The translations under genes and the position numbers were made by a program. 28,910 bases of DNA, from positions 1-28,910 of the forward strand of contig SCRI01000013.1 in NCBI GenBank assembly GCA_004298675.1, read 5' to 3'. Each line of letters begins with the position of its first letter. Within the stretch, counting starts at the first letter, position 1. This stretch comes from a bacterium (GTDB lineage: Bacteria > Vulcanimicrobiota > Vulcanimicrobiia > Vulcanimicrobiales > SCRA01). The notes beneath the pieces are model-generated. The model saw only the letters and a program-made list of their open reading frames with translations. It did no database searches and had not been told where the DNA came from. This document shows positions 13,310-23,309 of this stretch, in pieces.

Positions 13310-13515
13310 CGCTTGGGAGCTCGTGGGATAACCACGCCCAGGCGCCACAGCGCGGTGAGCGCGAAGGCAGCAAGTGCCGCGCCCAGCGCCCAGGTCCGCC
13401 ACGGATCGCGCAACGCCGTCGCGGCGGCGGCGACGGTTCCCGCTGCAAGCAGCAGTAGCGTCACGGCGCGCGGCAACGGACGCCCAAGTTCAGGGGTGCG
13501 ACGTTGCGGAGCCAT
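13306..13515 (-). CDS. Small two-TM membrane protein
   Basis: 69-residue protein not recognised as any named family. The N-terminus is basic (MAPQRRTPELGRPLPR), followed by two hydrophobic segments (~16-35, VTLLLLAAGTVAAAATAL; ~42-60, ALGAALAAFALTAL) and a basic tail (IPRAPKR). That pattern suggests a hairpin in the inner membrane with both ends cytoplasmic. The ATG at 13515 begins 11 nt after the enoyl-CoA hydratase stop, and its stop overlaps the PBP4 start by 4 nt. The overlap and the typical composition are the main arguments that it is real. A role as a membrane partner of the carboxypeptidase is only a guess. Confidence 0.65.
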   Translation of the reverse strand: MAPQRRTPELGRPLPRAVTLLLLAAGTVAAAATALRDPWRTWALGAALAAFALTALWRLGVVIPRAPKR

Positions 13516-13526
13516 GGAATACGACT

Positions 13527-14378
13527 CTACTGTCCGGTGAACTTGGCGCGGCGCTTCTCATTGTACGCCGCGATGCCTTCCTTGGCGTCCTGGCTCTTGA
13601 AGAGTAGCGACTGCAACTCGCGCTCGAGGGTCAATCCAGCTTCGAGCGACACCTCCGCGCCACTCTGCACCGCGCGCTTGATATGGCCAACCGCCATCGG
13701 CGCCTTGTTGGGCGAGGTGAACTGTTTGGCATACTCGAGGACCTGCGCGCGGAACGCCGCGGCATCACCCTCGTAGACATCGCTGACCATGCCGTACTCG
13801 CGCGCCTGCTCGAAGCTGAACGTGCGCCCGCTCACCAACAGCTCGATGGCGCGCGCCTTCCCCACCAGCCGCGCCAGCCGTTGCGTTCCGCCGGTGCCGG
13901 GCAGGACCCCCAGACTAACCTCGGGGAGCCCGATCTTCCCGGCGTCCTTGCGTGCCACGCGCAGATCGCACGCCAACGCGATCTCCAAGCCCCCGCCCAC
14001 GCAGTGCCCGTTGATCGCGGCGATCACCAGCTTCGGCGTCTGTTCCAGGCGGCTGAGCGTCTCGTTGGCGTGCAGGCAGAAGTAGTACTTGAACGCCGGC
14101 GTTACCGCGTTCAGCATCGCGATGTTGGCGCCGGCCGAGAAAAACTTCTCGCCCGCGCCGGTGACGACGATGACCTCCACCTCGTCGTCGAAGCGCGCGT
14201 CCAGCACGGCATCATCCAACTGGCGCATCATCTCGTGCGTGTAGGTGTTGGCAGGCGGATCGCACAGCTCGAGGATCGCCAGGTGCCCGTCCTTGTGGTA
14301 GTTGACCACGCGCTTGCCTTCAAACGGGCGGCTATCGCGGCCGAACGGGGTCTGCTGCGCCTGTATCTCGGTTGCCAT
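13527..14378 (-). CDS. Enoyl-CoA hydratase/isomerase (crotonase family)
   Basis: 283-residue crotonase-fold protein, predicted to hydrate an unsaturated CoA thioester in the catabolic operon (PaaF-like role). Both catalytic glutamates of true hydratases are present: Glu132 (GGGLEIALACD) and Glu153 (GLPEVSLGVLPGTGGTQRL). The oxyanion-hole segment FSAGANI is at ~80. An N-terminal extension of about 20 residues precedes the fold. ATG at 14378 has AGAAGG about 7 nt upstream; the frame stays open further but has no better start. It follows the oxygenase gene by 31 nt. Crotonases differ widely in substrate, so PaaF, PaaG or a BoxC-like role cannot be told apart here, although its length is far below that of BoxC. 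Confidence 0.85.
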   Translation of the reverse strand: MATEIQAQQTPFGRDSRPFEGKRVVNYHKDGHLAILELCDPPANTYTHEMMRQLDDAVLDARFDDEVEVIVVTGAGEKFFSAGANIAMLNAVTPAFKYYFCLHANETLSRLEQTPKLVIAAINGHCVGGGLEIALACDLRVARKDAGKIGLPEVSLGVLPGTGGTQRLARLVGKARAIELLVSGRTFSFEQAREYGMVSDVYEGDAAAFRAQVLEYAKQFTSPNKAPMAVGHIKRAVQSGAEVSLEAGLTLERELQSLLFKSQDAKEGIAAYNEKRRAKFTGQ

Positions 14379-14409
14379 TACGTGCCTTCTCTGCGCCTTG
14401 CGCCGTCGA

Positions 14410-15537
14410 TCAGTTGGGAAGGATCCGGCCCTTGGGAAGAATCCAGCCGGGCCGTTGAACGAATTCGCCGATGAGGCGTTCGTCTTCCGCGGTGGGGAGC
14501 ACCTCGCGCAGGTGCGCCGCATACTCCTGTTCGGAGAGTTGGCGCCCATCCACGGACCAGCGCTGCCCCGCGAAATCTCCGATGGAGCGGTTGAAGCGCG
14601 GGTCCGGCACGTAGAGGCGTTCTTCACCTGCCATGGCCTGGTTGACCATCTCCACCGTGCGTGACGCTTCATCGTAGAACTGCGCGCGGGCACGCTCGTT
14701 GAGATGTTCGCGATCCACCGGCTCGCCGGTCTTGTCTTCGTCCACGCGTCCCTTGATGCCGTAGGCGTAGGCCCAACTGGCGCTGGAGCTATGATCGGTC
14801 CCAAAGAGATCGAGCGATCCGGAGATCCACTTGTTGTAGTACTTCTGCTGCAGTTTGACCGGGACGATCCCGGCCGCGGCGATGCGCTTGAGCCCCGTGA
14901 TGCCGGTGCCCATGTGGAAAGCCTCCTCCTGCAGCATGGCACGCGTGGAGCGCGCCAGCGGAGCGAAAGCCGAGTGCGAGAGCATCGTGAGTTGGAACTT
15001 ACCGTCACGGTCCATGAAGTTCGTATAGGTGAAGAAATCCAGCCAATGCGTGACGTCGTTGTTGAAGGCGTTGAGCAGGCGATTGCGCCGCCCGAAGGCG
15101 CGCCGCTCCAACAGCTTCTGCGCCTCGATCTTGCCGTCTTCGCCGAAGTGCTCGATCAGCAGATAGCACATCTGGAAGCCGTGGCGCGTCTCCTCCATCA
15201 TGATGCGCACCAGCGCCGCCAAATCGTACTCCGTGGGCGCGTTGCGGACCAAGAACCGCTGCTGCTCGTTGGAGGCAAACTCGGTATCGCCCTGATAGAC
15301 GATCATGTTCATCAGCGCGTCGCGGATGCGTTGGTCGGGGATCTGCGTCAGCCGCTCCCACTTACGCTCGCCGGAGAAGTCGCCGAAGGCGATCTCCTCA
15401 GAAGGCAACGGCGCGAACTTCTCCTGCAGCGCGTAGCCGGGCAGGTAGCGCTCGATCAGACTCCTATCCAGGCCGATGTCGCGCTGCCATTCGCCCAGCA
15501 GGTCGACCCAGTCATCGAAGGTCGCAATTCTCGCCAT
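14410..15537 (-). CDS. BoxB/PaaA-like di-iron aromatic-CoA oxygenase component
   Basis: 375-residue ferritin-like di-iron protein of the phenylacetate/benzoyl-CoA epoxidase family. Iron-ligand pattern: Glu86 in GDTEFAS, Glu116-x-x-His119 in EETRHG, Asp167 in HWLDFF, and Glu205-x-x-His208 in EEAFHMG. The segments GDTE.AS.EQQR, MDRDGKFQL and SLDLFGTDHSS resemble BoxB (benzoyl-CoA 2,3-epoxidase) more than PaaA as I recall them. It is, however, about 100 residues shorter than BoxB (~475) and longer than PaaA (~310-330). It probably introduces oxygen into an aromatic CoA thioester in the cytosol. ATG at 15537 is preceded by GGGGGAGGG. Neighbours are an aldehyde dehydrogenase upstream and a hydratase downstream. 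No reductase (BoxA/PaaE) or CoA ligase is in the window. Confidence 0.82.
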   Translation of the reverse strand: MARIATFDDWVDLLGEWQRDIGLDRSLIERYLPGYALQEKFAPLPSEEIAFGDFSGERKWERLTQIPDQRIRDALMNMIVYQGDTEFASNEQQRFLVRNAPTEYDLAALVRIMMEETRHGFQMCYLLIEHFGEDGKIEAQKLLERRAFGRRNRLLNAFNNDVTHWLDFFTYTNFMDRDGKFQLTMLSHSAFAPLARSTRAMLQEEAFHMGTGITGLKRIAAAGIVPVKLQQKYYNKWISGSLDLFGTDHSSSASWAYAYGIKGRVDEDKTGEPVDREHLNERARAQFYDEASRTVEMVNQAMAGEERLYVPDPRFNRSIGDFAGQRWSVDGRQLSEQEYAAHLREVLPTAEDERLIGEFVQRPGWILPKGRILPN

Positions 15538-15568
15538 AGCCCTCCCCCGTGCGGTGCCACCCGGGGTC

Positions 15569-15593
15569 TGAGGCGAGCGTCACACGCGCCTCA
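15569..15593 (-). promoter_or_regulatory. Hairpin at the ALDH stop / oxygenase junction
   Basis: A 7-bp inverted repeat, TGAGGCG / CGCCTCA, with an 11-nt loop overlaps the TGA stop of the aldehyde dehydrogenase gene and lies 32 nt before the oxygenase start. There is no T-tract. It may tune expression between the two genes or be chance in GC-rich DNA. Confidence 0.35.
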
Positions 15594-17078
15594 CACGCGG
15601 AAGACCTCCACCGCCTTTTCACCCAGATAGGTCACGATCGCCTTAGTCTCTGTGTAGAGGTCTAATGTCTCGATACCCAATTCGCGCCCGTAGCCCGACT
15701 GCTTGTATCCGCCAAACGGTACGCCGGGAAAGACGCTGAAGGGCGTGTTGATGGCTATCGTGCCGCTGCGGATGCGCCCCGCGATGCGGCCGGCGCGCCC
15801 CACGTCCCTGGTCCAGATGCTGGCGGCCAAACCGTAGGCCGAGTCGTTGGCCAGTGCCACCGCTTCGTCGTCGCTGGAGAAGCGTGTCACGACCGCGACG
15901 GGCCCGAAGATCTCCTCGCGCGCAATCGTGGCCGCTGGATCGGCTTCGAAGATCGTGGGCGCGAAGAAATCACCGCCTTCGCAACCGCTCACCGCGGCGC
16001 GCTCGCCGCCCAGGATCAGCGTAGCCTCAGCTTTACCCTGCGCCACGTAGCGCTCGATCTTGGCGAACTGCTCGGGCAAGGTGATGGCACCCACGTGCGT
16101 GGTCTTCTCCATCGGATTGCCCATGACGAGCTTGGCGGCTTTGGTGGCAAACTTCTCGAGGAACGCGTCGTAGACGCGCTCGTGCACGAGCACGCGCGAA
16201 CGAGCCTCGCAGGTCTGCCCGGCGTTGTAGTAGATGCCGTAGAGCGCCGCAGCCACGGCGGCATCGACGTCGGAATCATCGAAGACCACCGACGGAGACT
16301 TTCCGCCCAGCTCCAGCGTCACGCGCTTGATGCTCTTAGCGGCGGCGGCGCCGATCCAGGCGCCGGTGGCCGTCGATCCGGTGAACGAGATCTTGTCCAC
16401 CAGCGGGCTCTCGACAAGGGCCTTGCCCGTTTCGGGACCCGGCCCGGTGACGATGTTCAGCACACCCTCGGGCAGTCCGGCCTCCAGCGCGATCTTCCCC
16501 AGCTCGAGCGCGGTGAGCGGCGTCGAAGGAGCGGGCTTGAGTACCAGCGTGCAGCCTGCAGCAAGCGCCGGCGCCACTTTCCAGCTCGCCAAGAGCAGCG
16601 GGAAATTCCACGGCACGATCGCGCCCACCACGCCTACGGGCTCTTTGAGTGTGTAGGTGAGGTAGGAGGAAGTGGGGCCGGGGATGGTATGGCCATAGAG
16701 CTTGGTGACGGCGCCGGCGTAGAACTCGAAGGTCTCGATCAGCGCGTTGACTTCGCCTTTGGCTACCCAGATCGGTTTGCCGTTGTCGGCAACTTCCAGC
16801 TCGGCGATCTCACTGGCCCGCTCCGCCAGCAGTTGCGCGATCTTATTGATGATGCGCGCTCGCTTGGCCGGCGGCAACTTCGTCCAGACCCCCGCGTCAC
16901 AGGCGTGGCGCGCCGCCGCAATAGCGCGCTCGACGTCCGCGCGCGTTGCCGCGGCGACGTCGGCGAGCGGAGCTCCGGTGGCTGGATTGCGATCGGAGTA
17001 CGTGGCGCCGTCCTGCGCGTCCACCCAGGCTCCGCCGATCAACAGCTGCGTCGTGCGCAGCGAGGCCGTGCTCGTCAT
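15591..17078 (-). CDS. Aldehyde dehydrogenase, NAD(P)-dependent
   Basis: 495-residue member of the classical ALDH superfamily, oxidising an aldehyde to the acid in the cytosol. Catalytic residues are Asn158 (VPWNFP), Glu256 (LELGGKSP) and Cys290 (NAGQTCEARSR); the cofactor loop SFTGSTATG is at ~231-239 and the C-terminal FGGYKQSGYGRE is intact. Length is normal. ATG at 17078 comes 1 nt after the thiolase stop (TGACATG), a strong sign of coupling. In an aromatic-CoA pathway it could act on phenylacetaldehyde feeding the route or on the ring-opened semialdehyde (BoxD or PaaZ-N role). Its sequence looks like a general ALDH1/betaine-aldehyde type, so substrate is open. Confidence 0.9.
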   Translation of the reverse strand: MTSTASLRTTQLLIGGAWVDAQDGATYSDRNPATGAPLADVAAATRADVERAIAAARHACDAGVWTKLPPAKRARIINKIAQLLAERASEIAELEVADNGKPIWVAKGEVNALIETFEFYAGAVTKLYGHTIPGPTSSYLTYTLKEPVGVVGAIVPWNFPLLLASWKVAPALAAGCTLVLKPAPSTPLTALELGKIALEAGLPEGVLNIVTGPGPETGKALVESPLVDKISFTGSTATGAWIGAAAAKSIKRVTLELGGKSPSVVFDDSDVDAAVAAALYGIYYNAGQTCEARSRVLVHERVYDAFLEKFATKAAKLVMGNPMEKTTHVGAITLPEQFAKIERYVAQGKAEATLILGGERAAVSGCEGGDFFAPTIFEADPAATIAREEIFGPVAVVTRFSSDDEAVALANDSAYGLAASIWTRDVGRAGRIAGRIRSGTIAINTPFSVFPGVPFGGYKQSGYGRELGIETLDLYTETKAIVTYLGEKAVEVFRV

Positions 17079-17079
17079 G

Positions 17080-18278
<1,199 letters not shown>

Positions 18279-18282
<4 letters not shown>

Positions 18283-18989
18283 CGCTGCGCGGGCTCCTTG
18301 CTTCCGGCTATCTCCCGCAACAACGGGGCCGGTTCGTAGGCGTCGCCCTCATGACGGCGCATGTTCTCGAGAATCGCGACGACGCGCTTGGGGCCGATCT
18401 CGCGCGCCCAAGCCAGCGGCCCACGCGGATAGTTGGTGCCCAACTGCATCGCGCGATCGACGTCGCCTTCTGATGCGACCCCGTTGGCCACCGCCCACGC
18501 GGCCTCATTGGCCAGCGCCGCGATCGTACGCCCAGAGATCAGGCCGGGGCGATCGCCCACCTTACGCGTCTCGTGTCCCAGCTCGCTGAAGAAAGTACGC
18601 GCCTGCTCTAGCGCGTCGTCGAGCGTGGCCGCACCGGTGGCCAGCTCCACGATCTTCTGGTCTGCAAGATGCGCCACCACACCGTAGCCCACGCAACGCC
18701 GTGGCTGTCCGGACCAGGTCGCGCATTCGGCGACGGTAGCCGGCAGCGCGTCCGCGAGCAATACCGCACGCGGCTGCAGCGCGCGGCCCATGGCCTCGAG
18801 CGCCTCGTACTTGCGATAGTGATCGGCGACGCACGCTTCCACGACGATCGTGGCCTCGGCCACCTCGCGCTCGATGGTGCGCAGATCCTTGACTGCGACC
18901 ACGCGATAATCCGCCGCCTGCGCGGCCTTGAAGATATCGTCGGCAACCGGTCCCCGGCCGAAGACGACCACGTAGCCTTTACTTGCCAT
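18279..18989 (-). CDS. PaaH C-terminal-half-like protein, dehydrogenase pseudo-subunit
   Basis: 236-residue protein that resembles the second half of long PaaH-type 3-hydroxyacyl-CoA dehydrogenases. The N-terminal ~110 residues look like a decayed Rossmann domain: GRGPVA stands where GxGxxG should be, the TNTSS serine motif is replaced by ALPAT, and the catalytic histidine is Gly103 (VGYG aligned with VGIH). The C-terminal domain (~147-210) is well preserved: DRPGLISGRTIAALANEA, then VASEGDVDRAMQLGTNYP and GPLAWAREIG. ATG at 18989 lies inside the upstream gene, which ends 11 nt later. I infer a non-catalytic partner of the first PaaH ORF, probably forming a heteromer that mimics the fused enzyme. 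Close paralogy within the pair could instead reflect an old duplication. Confidence 0.8.
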
Positions 18990-19851
18990 AGTCGTAGAAC
19001 CCACGAGCGGACTTGCGGCCGAGGCGCCCCTCGGCAACCATGCGTTCCTGCAGCGGCGAGGGGCGCAACCGCTCCAACTGCGTGGCCTCATAGACGCTGC
19101 GCGTGGTGGCGAGGTTGACGTCCAAACCGATGAGATCCATCAAACGGCAGGGACCCATCTTAAAGCCCAGTCCCTCCAAAATAGCATCGACGCTCTCGGC
19201 ATCGGCGGTGCCGGCGTCAATGGCGCGCAGCGCCTCTAAGTAGTAAGGGCGCGCGACGCGGTTGACGATGAAGCCCGGCGTGTCGCGCACGACCACCGGC
19301 ACCTTACCCAGGCGCTCGACGAACTCCACGGCTGCGCGCACGCTCTCTTCGGAACTCTGTTCCGCGCGCACCACCTCAACGAGCTTCATCAGCGCGGGCG
19401 GGTTGAAGAAATGGATGCCCACCACGTTCTGCGGGCGGCCGGTGGCCTTGGCGATCTCGCTCACGGCGAGCGAAGAGGTGTTGGTGGCCAGCAACGCCGG
19501 CGCCGGCGCGACGCGGTCCAACTCCGCGAAGACCGTATGCTTGAGATCGAGCAACTCCGGCACAGCTTCGATGTAGAGATCGCCCGGCGGCGCCTGCGCC
19601 AGCGACTCGACCAGACTGATGCGCGCAAAAGCGTCGGCTGCGGCCGTGCCTTCCGGAAGCAGGCGGCCAAGCGTCTTAGTGAGACCTGCCGCGGCACGCT
19701 CGCGCGCCGACGCGGCCGATTCGACCAACGCGACGGCGTAGCCGGCTGCCGCCGCGGACGCGGCGATACCCGCGCCCATCGTGCCGGCGCCGATCACGAT
19801 GATGGTATTCGTACAGGCCCCCTTATCTTGAGCAACACCGCAGCCCCCCAT
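18979..19851 (-). CDS. paaH: 3-hydroxyacyl-CoA dehydrogenase (PaaH N-terminal part, catalytic)
   Basis: 290-residue NAD-dependent dehydrogenase acting on 3-hydroxyadipyl-CoA or a similar thioester. The Rossmann motif GAGTMG is at 21-26; the catalytic set is complete: Ser126 in TNTSS, His147 in GIHFFNPP and Glu159 in LVEVV; DTPGFIVNRVARPYY and the GLDVN region form the C-terminal domain. Length fits single-domain 3-hydroxybutyryl-CoA dehydrogenases (~285). ATG at 19851 is my choice because the beta strand before GAGTMG needs it; GTG at 19884 is also possible and would leave a very short leader after the mapped promoter. It is the first gene of the catabolic operon and overlaps the next by 11 nt. 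Confidence 0.88.
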   Translation of the reverse strand: MGGCGVAQDKGACTNTIIVIGAGTMGAGIAASAAAAGYAVALVESAASARERAAAGLTKTLGRLLPEGTAAADAFARISLVESLAQAPPGDLYIEAVPELLDLKHTVFAELDRVAPAPALLATNTSSLAVSEIAKATGRPQNVVGIHFFNPPALMKLVEVVRAEQSSEESVRAAVEFVERLGKVPVVVRDTPGFIVNRVARPYYLEALRAIDAGTADAESVDAILEGLGFKMGPCRLMDLIGLDVNLATTRSVYEATQLERLRPSPLQERMVAEGRLGRKSARGFYDYGK

Positions 19852-19896
19852 CGAAGCGCTTCGACGGGACTGGTCTCCAGCCACGGGAGTACCGTC

Positions 19897-19925
19897 ATAC
19901 TACCCCCGGCCTCCCGGAGCGTCAA
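19897..19925 (-). promoter_or_regulatory. Promoter of the paaH-led catabolic operon
   Basis: Minus strand: TTGACG (19925-19920, 5 of 6) and TAGTAT (19902-19897, 4 of 6) with a 17-nt spacer. The predicted start is near 19890, giving a leader of ~38 nt to the ATG at 19851. This is the best sigma-70-like promoter in the window. The spacer contains CTCCGGGAG, a small dyad that might be an operator. No regulator gene is adjacent. Confidence 0.6.
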
Positions 19926-19980
19926 CATTGTTCACTTAGCGATAACGTCATGTCCCCCTTGGGGGCGGTTGGGGCATTGC

Positions 19981-19996
19981 CTCGCCATGAGGCGAG
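19981..19996 (+). promoter_or_regulatory. Start-codon hairpin of the prepilin gene
   Basis: CTCGCC-ATGA-GGCGAG is a perfect 6-bp stem whose 4-nt loop contains the ATG. No strong Shine-Dalgarno precedes it. A few bases upstream lies CCCCC-TT-GGGGG (19953-19964), another stem. The arrangement could limit translation of the prepilin, although a 6-bp GC palindrome is not rare in DNA of this composition. Confidence 0.4.
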
Positions 19997-21282
19997 CAGC
20001 GGGTTTCACGATTCTGGAAATCCTGATTGCGGCGGGCATCACGGCGGCAGTCGCCGTGGGGCTGGTGGTGCTGCTGCACCGCACGATCGCCGCTGCCGCT
20101 TCCCTTGCACTACACCGCCATGCGTACGCCATGGCTGAAGATTTGGACCAGCGCTGGGATGCCGAGGCCACCTCCGCTCTGGCGATCTTCGTGCCGGGCG
20201 CGGACGTAACGGGCGCCTCCAACGCCGACGGCCACGAAGTGGACTTCTTCACCCGCGACGGACACGGTACGCCCTTCTTCTGGGCCTATCGCTACGACGG
20301 CACGGCTCATACGCTGCAGCGCTACACCTACAACGCGCCGGGAACCGCCGCAACCGCGTCGGGCGATCCGCTGCCCGGCGTCACGTCCTTCACGGCGATG
20401 CCGGTGCCCGTGAACACGTTTAGCGAGCCGATCTTCAGCGCCTATAAGAGCGCACCGGTTCGCGAGAATCTCGGATATCCCGGCGTCGATGGCGGCAACG
20501 GGGTGACCGAGGTACATCTGGTAACCACCGACGATGACGTCAATGGCGACCTGCTGCCCGGAGTCTCTCCCAGCGGCTTCACTGTAGTCGTGGGCACGTT
20601 CACGCCGCCGCCAAGTCCGCTGCTCGTGGGGCCGCCGCTGACGTTCGATTCGCCTACCGCACCGGCGCAGTCGTTCACGATCTCGCAGCAGTACTACCGT
20701 GGGCCGTTCACGGTCTCACCGCAGTGCGTCGTCGGCGCAGGCCAGAGCGTCCCAGCCGGCACCGTTGCCGCGACCGTGACGGCAACGGCCCCCGGCCCCA
20801 ACGGCTCGCTCATCGTCACCGTCACACCGAATGCGAAGTTGGGGAATGCAAAAATCGTGAAGTGTAGTATTTCCGTGGCCGGCGCGAACAGTCAGACCGG
20901 TACAGAAACGATTTACATCGATCCATATCCGACGGGAAGCATTCCGCTCAGCCTTTCGCTAGCGGCCGTAGCCAACGTCAATACAGGAGGCTCGTGTGTA
21001 ATTTCGACCGTTACGGCAAAAGTTGGCCCCGTCCTCGCATCACGTCTAGCGCTAGAAGGAACGCCGTCATCGGGCGCCGGCTACCCTTTTTCTCCAGCAG
21101 TTGTGCTTGGGCAAACTTTCCAGAGCGCCTATAGCTCGGACAACCTTGCTCCACCTGGTTTGGCGACCGACTCAAGCTCGTGGAACACACTTATTGCACA
21201 AGCTCAGAACGCCGCTAGCGGTACTCCGATCTACATTACCGTAACCGCCGAACTCTACCCGGCATGTGGCGGCGGAACATAG
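19987..21282 (+). CDS. Type IV prepilin-like protein with large exported domain
   Basis: 431-residue protein with a classic prepilin N-terminus: short basic leader MRRAAG, cleavage before Phe7, Glu11 at mature position +5, then a ~20-residue hydrophobic helix. It should be processed by a prepilin peptidase and either assemble into a pilus/pseudopilus or anchor in the inner membrane. The rest is an exported Ser/Thr/Pro/Gly-rich region with beta-rich segments and several cysteines; I recognise no named domain. The length is large for a major pilin and closer to minor pseudopilins. No other pilus gene is near. GC is ~73% up to 20820 and ~50% after, within the same frame. The ATG sits in the loop of a 6-bp hairpin (19981-19996). 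Confidence 0.7.
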   Translation: MRRAAGFTILEILIAAGITAAVAVGLVVLLHRTIAAAASLALHRHAYAMAEDLDQRWDAEATSALAIFVPGADVTGASNADGHEVDFFTRDGHGTPFFWAYRYDGTAHTLQRYTYNAPGTAATASGDPLPGVTSFTAMPVPVNTFSEPIFSAYKSAPVRENLGYPGVDGGNGVTEVHLVTTDDDVNGDLLPGVSPSGFTVVVGTFTPPPSPLLVGPPLTFDSPTAPAQSFTISQQYYRGPFTVSPQCVVGAGQSVPAGTVAATVTATAPGPNGSLIVTVTPNAKLGNAKIVKCSISVAGANSQTGTETIYIDPYPTGSIPLSLSLAAVANVNTGGSCVISTVTAKVGPVLASRLALEGTPSSGAGYPFSPAVVLGQTFQSAYSSDNLAPPGLATDSSSWNTLIAQAQNAASGTPIYITVTAELYPACGGGT

Positions 21283-22310: not shown

Positions 22311-22352
22311 TTTGGGAAAACAGATTGTGTTTTCCAAACCGAAGCATATACT
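22311..22352 (+). promoter_or_regulatory. RES-Xre promoter with inverted-repeat operator
   Basis: TTGTGT (22325-22330) and TATACT (22347-22352) with a 16-nt spacer form a likely promoter; the leader to the ATG at 22372 would be short and includes GGAGG. An imperfect inverted repeat, TTTGGGAAAAC / GTTTTCCAAA with a 7-nt centre (22311-22338), covers the -35. That position suits autorepression by the antitoxin, as in other toxin-antitoxin loci. It also lies upstream of the divergent lipoprotein gene. Confidence 0.6.
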
Positions 22353-22371
22353 TGGTGGTGGAGGAACACAG

Positions 22372-22755
22372 ATGGCTTGGAGTCTCTTACTTCAGTACTT
22401 GGAAGCTCCAACGAACCCGGGAGCGCTCTCCGCTGTTCAGCCGCTCCTCGCGCGCCTCGTCGAGGCCTACGGCATACGACCGCTAGCCCGATTGCTTGGC
22501 GTCGGTCCCGGAACGGTCGCGAACTGGAACAGCGGGCGCCGCAGGATGAGCGCCGAGATGACCAAGCGCGTCATCGACCTCCATGACATCCTCAACCGCG
22601 CGCTGCAGGTCTTTCCGCCAGACACCGCCGCACGATGGCTCGTAAGCAGCGAGCCCTTCCTGGACCACCACCGACCTATCGACGTGCTCGCGCTCCGCGG
22701 CGCCGCACCCCTGATCGAAGCCCTGGAAGCCATCGATGCGGGCGCATACGCTTGA
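22372..22755 (+). CDS. Xre/MbcA/ParS-family antitoxin
   Basis: 127-residue antitoxin of a RES-type toxin-antitoxin pair. A helix-turn-helix-like segment is at ~35-60 (IRPLARLLGVGPGTVANWNSGRR). The C-terminal toxin-binding region (~80-127) shows the family pattern of a Trp-Leu helix, PIDVLALRGAAPLIEALEAIDAGAYA-like ending with the terminal GAYA that typically inserts into the RES active site. ATG at 22372 has GGAGG 6-8 nt upstream, better than upstream starts. Its stop overlaps the toxin start by 4 nt. It probably neutralises the RES protein and represses its own promoter through the inverted repeat at 22311-22338. Confidence 0.88.
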   Translation: MAWSLLLQYLEAPTNPGALSAVQPLLARLVEAYGIRPLARLLGVGPGTVANWNSGRRRMSAEMTKRVIDLHDILNRALQVFPPDTAARWLVSSEPFLDHHRPIDVLALRGAAPLIEALEAIDAGAYA

Positions 22756-23309
22756 AACTGTACCGGGTCTTCCCCCACGACGATACCGCCGCCCCGACCA
22801 ATCGAGGCGGCGCGCTGTTTGTCCCGGCGGGCTCACGTGGCCAAATCGACAATCCAGATCTTTACCGTGTGCTCTATGCAAGCAGCCACCCCGAGGGAGC
22901 AGTGGCCGAGATCTTTGGCAGGCTTGCGATTTGGAAAGCGGGCGACTTCGTTCACGCGAACGGAAACCCATACGCCTTGGCAACGTACGACCTAGCCGAC
23001 GCTGCGCTCATCTTCGACCTCGACGATATCGACGCCATGAGATCGCTGCATATCCAGCGCCCGACGAGCGTGATCACGCGCGACCGTAGGGCCACACAGG
23101 CATGGGCACGCGAGATATACGCGCGGCACGACTGGATCGGAGCGGGATGGTGGTCGTACTACGATCCCTCTTTTAAGGCCTTCGGACTGTGGGATATCTC
23201 GCTGCTCGCGCTCGCAAAACCACCCGAACCCATCACCGTTTCGTCGCCTTGCGTCATTGACGCGGCGACCACGATTATCCGCCAGATCGACGCCGGCCTT
23301 CGCCGCTAG
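22752..23309 (+). CDS. RES-domain toxin (NAD-targeting family)
   Basis: 185-residue RES domain protein. The family resembles ADP-ribosyltransferases; characterised members (MbcT, ParT, P. putida RES) degrade or consume NAD+ or modify targets with it. Candidate active-site residues by position are Arg29 (GSRGQ), Tyr42 (LYAS), Glu53 (VAEIFGR) and Ser135 (WWSYYD); the name-giving Arg, Glu and Ser are therefore all present. It looks full length and intact. The TTG at 22752 overlaps the antitoxin stop (TTGA). The stop TAG sits in a CTAG shared with the stop of convergent prfC. The intact toxin implies an active antitoxin. Confidence 0.88.
   Translation: MKLYRVFPHDDTAAPTNRGGALFVPAGSRGQIDNPDLYRVLYASSHPEGAVAEIFGRLAIWKAGDFVHANGNPYALATYDLADAALIFDLDDIDAMRSLHIQRPTSVITRDRRATQAWAREIYARHDWIGAGWWSYYDPSFKAFGLWDISLLALAKPPEPITVSSPCVIDAATTIIRQIDAGLRR

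What the first reader, a model, noticed from the sequence alone, without database searches (positions are those of the whole stretch)
13527..19925. Compact aromatic-CoA operon built around a shortened BoxB-like oxygenase
One good promoter leads paaH (two parts), a ketoadipyl-CoA thiolase, an aldehyde dehydrogenase, a 375-residue BoxB/PaaA-like di-iron protein and a hydratase. The oxygenase has all iron ligands but is ~100 residues shorter than BoxB and lacks PaaBCE or BoxA and BoxC neighbours. The set matches neither the standard paa nor the standard box cluster, so substrate and electron donor may be new.
Basis: partly seen in the sequence, partly recalled or inferred. Interest (0 to 1): 0.65.

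Follow-up and report, generated by a model that had tools for sequence, protein, structure and literature searches.

The report
Short BoxB-like aromatic-ring epoxidase operon
This soil-bacterium operon carries a trimmed relative of the enzyme that attacks the ring of benzoyl-CoA with oxygen; it belongs to an apparently undescribed third family, common in Eremiobacterota and Acidobacteria, and probably runs a stripped-down benzoate-type pathway without the usual electron-donor partner.

Summary
The operon is real. Six minus-strand ORFs (13527-19884) encode a split PaaH-type dehydrogenase, a 3-oxoadipyl-CoA-type thiolase, an aldehyde dehydrogenase, a 375-aa BoxB-like di-iron protein (OX) and a crotonase (ECH). 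All six iron ligands are kept. OX is a trimmed but full-fold BoxB: its predicted model matches BoxB at Z 41 over 363 residues. It falls below the BoxB family cut-off and outside both BoxB and PaaA in a tree.

OX is widespread: 72 of 121 surveyed genomes of the phylum, plus Acidobacteria. In 65 of the 72 no BoxB, BoxC, PaaZ or AurF-like protein was found. BoxA was found in none of the 121.

This genome also has a canonical box cluster and a separate phenylacetate cluster on other contigs. OX is therefore not needed for phenylacetate.

Benzoyl-CoA-type chemistry is the best fit. The benzoyl-binding residues of BoxB are largely invariant in 92 OX sequences and changed in PaaA. Acidobacterial OX clusters carry 4-hydroxybenzoyl-CoA reductase. 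One Eremiobacterota genus has a benzoate-CoA-ligase-family gene beside OX-ECH.

Reading: a BoxA-free mini-box module with a short epoxidase. Substrate, ring-opening enzyme and electron donor are inferred, not shown.

The parts
19897..19925 (-). promoter-like site TTGACG-17-TAGTAT upstream of the operon
   Evidence: 9/12 consensus; number of such sites not clearly above chance
18979..19884 (-). PaaH-type 3-hydroxyacyl-CoA dehydrogenase, N-terminal part (301 aa from GTG; true start may lie further in)
   Evidence: PF02737 191 bits and PF00725 99 bits; TIGR02279 290 bits, below cut-off 669
18279..18989 (-). PaaH C-terminal part as a separate overlapping gene (ATG at 18989)
   Evidence: PF00725 52 bits and PF02737 28.6 bits on the ORF 18279-19091; overlap ATGGCAAGTAA; split also in L005 and L056
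17080..18282 (-). 3-oxoadipyl-CoA-type thiolase (PcaF/PaaJ-like), 400 aa
   Evidence: TIGR02430 558 bits, cut-off 597
15591..17078 (-). aldehyde dehydrogenase, 495 aa, proposed semialdehyde dehydrogenase; BoxD and PaaZ families are not among its top hits
   Evidence: PF00171 575 bits; best NCBIfam TIGR01804 511 bits, below cut-off 669
14410..15537 (-). OX: short BoxB-like di-iron oxygenase, 375 aa
   Evidence: TIGR03225 236 bits, cut-off 499; TIGR02156 39 bits, cut-off 280; tree; model and fold match; ligands and pocket
13527..14378 (-). ECH: single-domain crotonase, 283 aa, usually beside OX; candidate ring-opening hydratase or dehydroadipyl-CoA hydratase
   Evidence: PF00378 174 bits; both catalytic Glu in 80/80 orthologues; 38% to E. 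coli PaaF, 36% to BoxC N-half; neighbourhoods

Best explanation
OX is a short BoxB-type di-iron epoxidase. With O2 and two electrons it puts an epoxide on the ring of benzoyl-CoA or a ring-substituted benzoyl-CoA. The neighbouring crotonase ECH opens the ring or hydrates a product further down. The aldehyde dehydrogenase oxidises the semialdehyde, and the split PaaH and the thiolase finish through 3-hydroxyadipyl- and 3-oxoadipyl-CoA to succinyl-CoA and acetyl-CoA. It works like the box pathway with reduced or replaced parts: no BoxA, a single-domain crotonase in place of or beside the two-domain BoxC, and an aldehyde dehydrogenase outside the BoxD family. Shown here: the genes, the predicted fold, metal ligands, pocket residues, phylogenetic position and co-occurrence. 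Inferred: substrate, order of reactions, the role of ECH, and use of a general or unidentified reductase.
For: (1) The full-length BoxB fold is kept in the predicted model: Z 41.2, 363 aligned residues, 39% identity, against Z 21 for PaaA. The ~100 missing residues are the N-terminus and loops, not a domain. (2) The six iron ligands plus Gln116, Thr119, Ser123 and Phe193 of BoxB, which hold iron or orient the benzoyl group (PMC5489048), are invariant in 92 OX and 8 BoxB; PaaA has His, Ser and Gly at the first three pocket positions. (3) In one genus (G058, G059) OX-ECH is followed by a benzoate-CoA-ligase-family gene and CoA-transferase genes; the G059 ligase scores 569 bits against a cut-off of 375. 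(4) Acidobacterial OX clusters hold 4-hydroxybenzoyl-CoA reductase, which makes benzoyl-CoA: one alpha subunit scores 1039 bits against cut-off 995, and the beta subunit aligns with 1rm6_B through its cysteine-rich stretch. All 29 genomes of the phylum survey with a high-scoring relative of that alpha subunit have OX or a longer OX relative, in 17 of 17 genera. (5) ECH and ALDH stay with OX in Eremiobacterota and many Acidobacteria; the thiolase and PaaH fit a 3-oxoadipyl-CoA end. (6) In 65 of 72 OX genomes no BoxB, BoxC, PaaZ or AurF-like protein was found, so the module can stand alone.
Against: This genome already has canonical BoxB, BoxC and a benzoate-CoA ligase, so OX must be redundant or act on a different benzoyl-CoA. 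Two pocket positions differ consistently from BoxB: Phe206 is Tyr in 92/92, and Thr210 is Met, Val or Ile. ECH is closer to PaaF than to BoxC, so the ring-opening enzyme is not identified. No ligase or reductase lies beside OX in the window. Several deeper-branching OX genes (L058, L068, L135, L136) have no ECH nearby. The local regulator in relatives is PaaX-like, and the characterised PaaX responds to phenylacetyl-CoA (PMC4498308). Gene counts across the phylum are not corrected for relatedness.
Confidence: 0.6

Rival explanations
1. OX is a phenylacetyl-CoA epoxidase that replaces PaaABCE, controlled by a PaaX-like repressor.
For: A PaaX-like gene (two examples score 244 and 252 bits, cut-off 265) adjoins OX in most Eremiobacterota. 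PaaH and PaaJ-type genes are shared with the paa pathway. This genome lacks PaaA and PaaC.
Against: Only 3 of 72 OX genomes have PaaZ over the cut-off. G027 has both a canonical paaZ-A-C-D-E-I-J-K cluster and a separate OX. G029, G060 and G105 have PaaZ without OX. Pocket residues follow BoxB, not PaaA. This genome's paa cluster has its own di-iron protein and reductase.
Confidence: 0.12
2. OX is a BoxB-like epoxidase for a specific substituted aryl-CoA that canonical BoxB does not take (for example amino-, hydroxy- or methoxy-benzoyl-CoA), so box and OX divide the substrates.
For: Both enzymes coexist in three genomes of this genus (G000, G024, G025). Two consistent pocket changes. A second benzoate-CoA-ligase-family gene in the genus (C41, 610 bits), also in G026, which has OX but no BoxC over the cut-off.
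Against: Acidobacterial clusters would feed unsubstituted benzoyl-CoA if their reductase acts as named. No structural evidence for a particular substituent.
Confidence: 0.2
3. The operon is only the shared lower pathway (PaaH, thiolase, ECH, ALDH) for the box and paa clusters elsewhere, with OX a passenger or non-catalytic paralogue.
For: Neither the C32 nor the C10 stretch as read shows PaaH next to its upper-pathway genes.
Against: OX is highly conserved (all ligands in 92/92; 70% mean column identity) and widespread in genomes where neither box nor paa genes were found. OX-ECH is the part of the cluster that stays together when PaaH and thiolase are elsewhere.
Confidence: 0.08

Closest known systems
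BoxB, benzoyl-CoA 2,3-epoxidase (Azoarcus evansii, PDB 3PM5; TIGR03225)
   Same: Whole fold in the predicted model, six iron ligands, Gln116/Thr119/Ser123/Phe193 of the benzoyl pocket
   Different: About 100 residues shorter; below the family cut-off (236 vs 499 bits); separate clade; Phe206Tyr and Thr210Met/Val/Ile; no BoxA found in the phylum; no two-domain BoxC beside it
PaaA of phenylacetyl-CoA 1,2-epoxidase (PDB 4IIT; TIGR02156)
   Same: Di-iron core and superfamily
   Different: 39 vs cut-off 280 bits; pocket residues differ; no PaaB, PaaC, PaaD or PaaE beside it
box pathway (BoxA-B-C-D plus beta-oxidation of adipyl-CoA intermediates)
   Same: Epoxidase, crotonase, aldehyde dehydrogenase, 3-hydroxyacyl-CoA dehydrogenase and 3-oxoadipyl-CoA-type thiolase in one operon
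   Different: BoxA missing, BoxC not orthologous, aldehyde dehydrogenase not of the BoxD family by its top hits, PaaX-like rather than BoxR-like regulator in relatives

Membership tests
BoxB (TIGR03225 equivalog) | score over the curated cut-off (499.1 bits) | tested here: not met
   236.2 bits; this genome's own BoxB scores 790
BoxB (TIGR03225 equivalog) | groups inside the BoxB clade | tested here: not met
   BoxB rows form one clade, support 100/100; all OX rows lie outside
BoxB (TIGR03225 equivalog) | BoxB fold with six iron ligands and benzoyl-orienting residues | tested here: met
   Z 41.2 over 363 residues (predicted model); ligands and Gln116/Thr119/Ser123/Phe193 conserved; Phe206 and Thr210 changed
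BoxB (TIGR03225 equivalog) | BoxA reductase partner encoded in the genome | tested here: not met
   TIGR03224 found in 0 of 121 genomes at E <= 1e-30; canonical BoxB of this phylum fails this too
BoxB (TIGR03225 equivalog) | converts benzoyl-CoA to the 2,3-epoxide | not testable with these tools
   needs an enzyme assay
PaaA (TIGR02156) | score over cut-off (280 bits) and PaaA clade | tested here: not met
   39.2 bits; outside the PaaA clade
PaaA (TIGR02156) | PaaC structural partner encoded in the genome | tested here: not met
   PF05138 finds only OX and BoxB in this genome
BoxC (TIGR03222), for ECH | two-domain protein of ~548 aa over 712 bits | tested here: not met
   ECH is 283 aa and matches model positions 43-235 only, 92 bits
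PaaF (NF007239), for ECH | score over cut-off (371 bits) | tested here: not met
   186 bits; 38% identity to E. coli PaaF
BoxD (3,4-dehydroadipyl-CoA semialdehyde dehydrogenase, NF008868), for ALDH | score over its cut-off (444 bits) | tested here: not met
   not among the best 25 NCBIfam matches, which run from 511 down to 270 bits

The most novel reading that the evidence does not exclude
A third, undescribed family of ring-attacking di-iron epoxidases is a main aerobic route into the aromatic ring in an uncultured phylum and in many Acidobacteria. In the latter it is wired to 4-hydroxybenzoyl-CoA reductase, an enzyme known mainly from anaerobic metabolism, so that 4-hydroxybenzoate would be dehydroxylated to benzoyl-CoA and then epoxidised, with an electron donor that is not BoxA.
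Probability: 0.4. Interest if true: 0.65.

Novelty: new variant of a known kind. Interest (0 to 1): 0.5.

Why it matters
If right, aerobic CoA-thioester degradation of aromatics is more widespread than box and paa markers show, because this family falls under the curated cut-offs for both BoxB and PaaA. It would assign an aromatic-carbon route to many uncultured bacteria of two phyla, and give a compact enzyme for asking how BoxB-type epoxidases receive electrons without BoxA.

Tried and rejected
Rejected: OX as the phenylacetyl-CoA epoxidase of this genome. The paa genes on C10 have their own AurF-like di-iron protein plus reductase, and PaaZ rarely occurs with OX. Rejected: PaaH split as a sequencing artefact, since it is also seen in two relatives. 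Weakened: ECH as a BoxC orthologue; it is closer to PaaF. Searched without result: BoxA in the phylum; a TIGR03194 match over the cut-off in this genome (best 519 bits, at the level of xanthine-dehydrogenase-like paralogues); literature on this family (open-licence papers only). PaaX-like remnants in the window were not found. The plasmid search gave canonical BoxB (up to 41% identity) and PaaA, no short OX.

Full report
WHAT IS THERE. The window is contig C83 of a 98.5% complete, 3.03-Mb genome; most of its nearest named relatives are MAGs of Candidatus Eremiobacterota. Minus-strand ORFs from 19884 to 13527 encode a PaaH-type dehydrogenase in two overlapping genes, a 3-oxoadipyl-CoA-type thiolase (558 bits, cut-off 597), an aldehyde dehydrogenase, OX (375 aa) and a crotonase ECH. 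Neighbouring genes overlap or are separated by at most 53 bases, which fits one transcript. The promoter-like site at 19925-19897 is plausible but such sites are not clearly above chance.

THE OXYGENASE. OX scores 236 bits with the BoxB model (cut-off 499) and 39 bits with PaaA (cut-off 280). An AlphaFold2 model (pLDDT 88, pTM 0.87) matches BoxB at Z 41.2 over 363 residues (39% identity) and PaaA at Z 21, so OX is a complete BoxB fold with shortened N-terminus and loops. The six ligands reported for BoxB (PMC5489048) are invariant in 92 OX sequences. Of the residues said to orient the benzoyl group, Gln116, Thr119, Ser123 and Phe193 are invariant and Phe203 nearly so; Phe206 is Tyr in all 92 and Thr210 is Met, Val or Ile. 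PaaA has His, Ser and Gly at the first three. In a maximum-likelihood tree BoxB is one clade (100/100), PaaA one clade (100/99), and all OX rows lie outside both, on the BoxB side of a 99/97 split. The order of branches among OX groups is not resolved, and the branches to PaaA and PaaC are long.

DISTRIBUTION. A contig search kept 80 loci: about 50 Eremiobacterota or unnamed bacterial MAGs at 68-88% identity and about 26 Acidobacteria at 53-57%, plus single Rokubacteria, Deltaproteobacteria and Zixibacteria loci. In a survey of 121 genomes of the phylum (at least 80% complete), 72 have short OX (one of these, G102, by a contig-edge fragment), 6 a longer (413-446 aa) relative at about 30%, 14 canonical BoxB, 13 BoxC over cut-off, 19 PaaZ over cut-off, 17 an AurF-like di-iron protein, and none BoxA at E <= 1e-30. 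The lists were read off the tables by eye and tallied by script. In 65 of the 72 OX genomes none of BoxB, BoxC, PaaZ or the AurF-like protein was found. These counts take no account of relatedness.

NEIGHBOURHOODS. In Eremiobacterota of the main family the usual order is PaaH-thiolase-ALDH, a divergent PaaX-like gene, then OX-ECH. In two genomes of one genus OX-ECH is followed by a ligase and CoA-transferase genes; the ligase in G059 scores 569 bits with the benzoate-CoA-ligase family (cut-off 375). In another family CoA-transferase genes follow OX-ECH in several genomes. In Acidobacteria the usual order is TetR-ECH-ALDH-OX, followed by a further crotonase and/or CoA-transferase genes, an XDH-type triad and an amidohydrolase. 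That triad is 4-hydroxybenzoyl-CoA reductase: of two alpha subunits tested one is over the curated cut-off (1039 vs 995 bits) and the other slightly under (917), and the beta subunit aligns to 1rm6_B through the cysteine-rich insert. In the phylum survey, 29 genomes have a relative of that alpha subunit at 620-880 bits (none over the cut-off; one, G020, is a contig-edge fragment at 621), and all 29 have OX or its longer relative. The line between these and XDH-like paralogues was drawn by eye after seeing the scores: G007 scores 619 and was left out, though it has OX as well. The genome of the window has none (best 519 bits).

THE REST OF THE PATHWAY IN THIS GENOME. Contig C32 has a benzoate-CoA ligase (733 bits), a BoxR-like regulator, BoxC (877) and BoxB (790). 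Contig C10 has PaaK (708), PaaZ (959), a PaaG-like crotonase (304, cut-off 345), a thiolase, a PaaI-like thioesterase and PaaX (281), and, in place of PaaABC, an AurF-like di-iron protein and a 2Fe-2S/FAD reductase; no PaaA or PaaC is found. A second benzoate-CoA-ligase-family gene on C41 (610 bits) is shared by the genus, including G026, which has OX but no BoxC over the cut-off; it is a candidate partner, not an adjacent one.

MECHANISM. The simplest reading is a box-like route: epoxidation by OX, ring opening, semialdehyde oxidation by ALDH, then PaaH and thiolase. Which enzyme opens the ring is open. ECH is usually beside OX and has both catalytic glutamates in 80 of 80 orthologues, but by similarity it is nearer PaaF than BoxC. 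The CoA transferases in some clusters resemble glutaconate CoA-transferase family proteins and might do a step too. The electron donor is unknown.

LIMITS. No experiment supports the substrate. Co-occurrence in related MAGs is not independent evidence, and MAG gaps can hide genes. The literature searched was open-licence only, so prior description elsewhere cannot be excluded. The pocket argument uses residues named in a computational paper and an alignment at about 39% identity.

Noticed in passing
L095 (G000:C10:24000-43000), 15135-17309 minus: A phenylacetate cluster with an AurF-like di-iron protein (364 aa; no NCBIfam or PDB match at the thresholds used) and a 2Fe-2S/FAD reductase where PaaABC would be. 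Relatives: 78% in a Vitreoscilla plasmid paa cluster that also has paaABCDE, 51% in a Variovorax plasmid. Possible alternative phenylacetyl-CoA oxygenase.
   Followed up: partly
phylum survey: BoxA was found in none of 121 genomes although 13 have BoxC and 14 BoxB, so canonical BoxB here probably uses another reductase.
   Followed up: partly
L060, L070, L072 and other Acidobacterial loci: 4-hydroxybenzoyl-CoA reductase genes sit in the same cluster as an O2-dependent ring oxygenase.
   Followed up: partly
window 13403-13526: The PaaX-like gene found between ECH and the DacB-like gene in relatives L005 and L056, and next to ECH in L052, is absent here; TIGR02277 finds only the C10 PaaX in this genome.
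   Followed up: partly
L058:9475-10737: A NuoF-type protein (PF01512, PF10589) lies downstream of OX in a Deltaproteobacterial locus: a possible electron-donor lead from a single locus.
   Followed up: no
G005, G006, G108-G111 (L139-L141, L155): A longer OX relative (413-446 aa, about 30% identity) forms its own supported clade.
   Followed up: partly
window 22312-23309 plus: A RES-domain gene (PF08808, 42 bits) overlapping an upstream ORF with a weak Xre/MbcA/ParS C-terminal match (23.0 bits, cut-off 24.5): likely RES-Xre toxin-antitoxin pair.
   Followed up: partly
window 19411-21282 plus: Divergent ORF with a weak prepilin N-methylation motif (17.9 bits, cut-off 21.2) beside the operon; similar genes lie in the same place in L005 and L056.
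   Followed up: no
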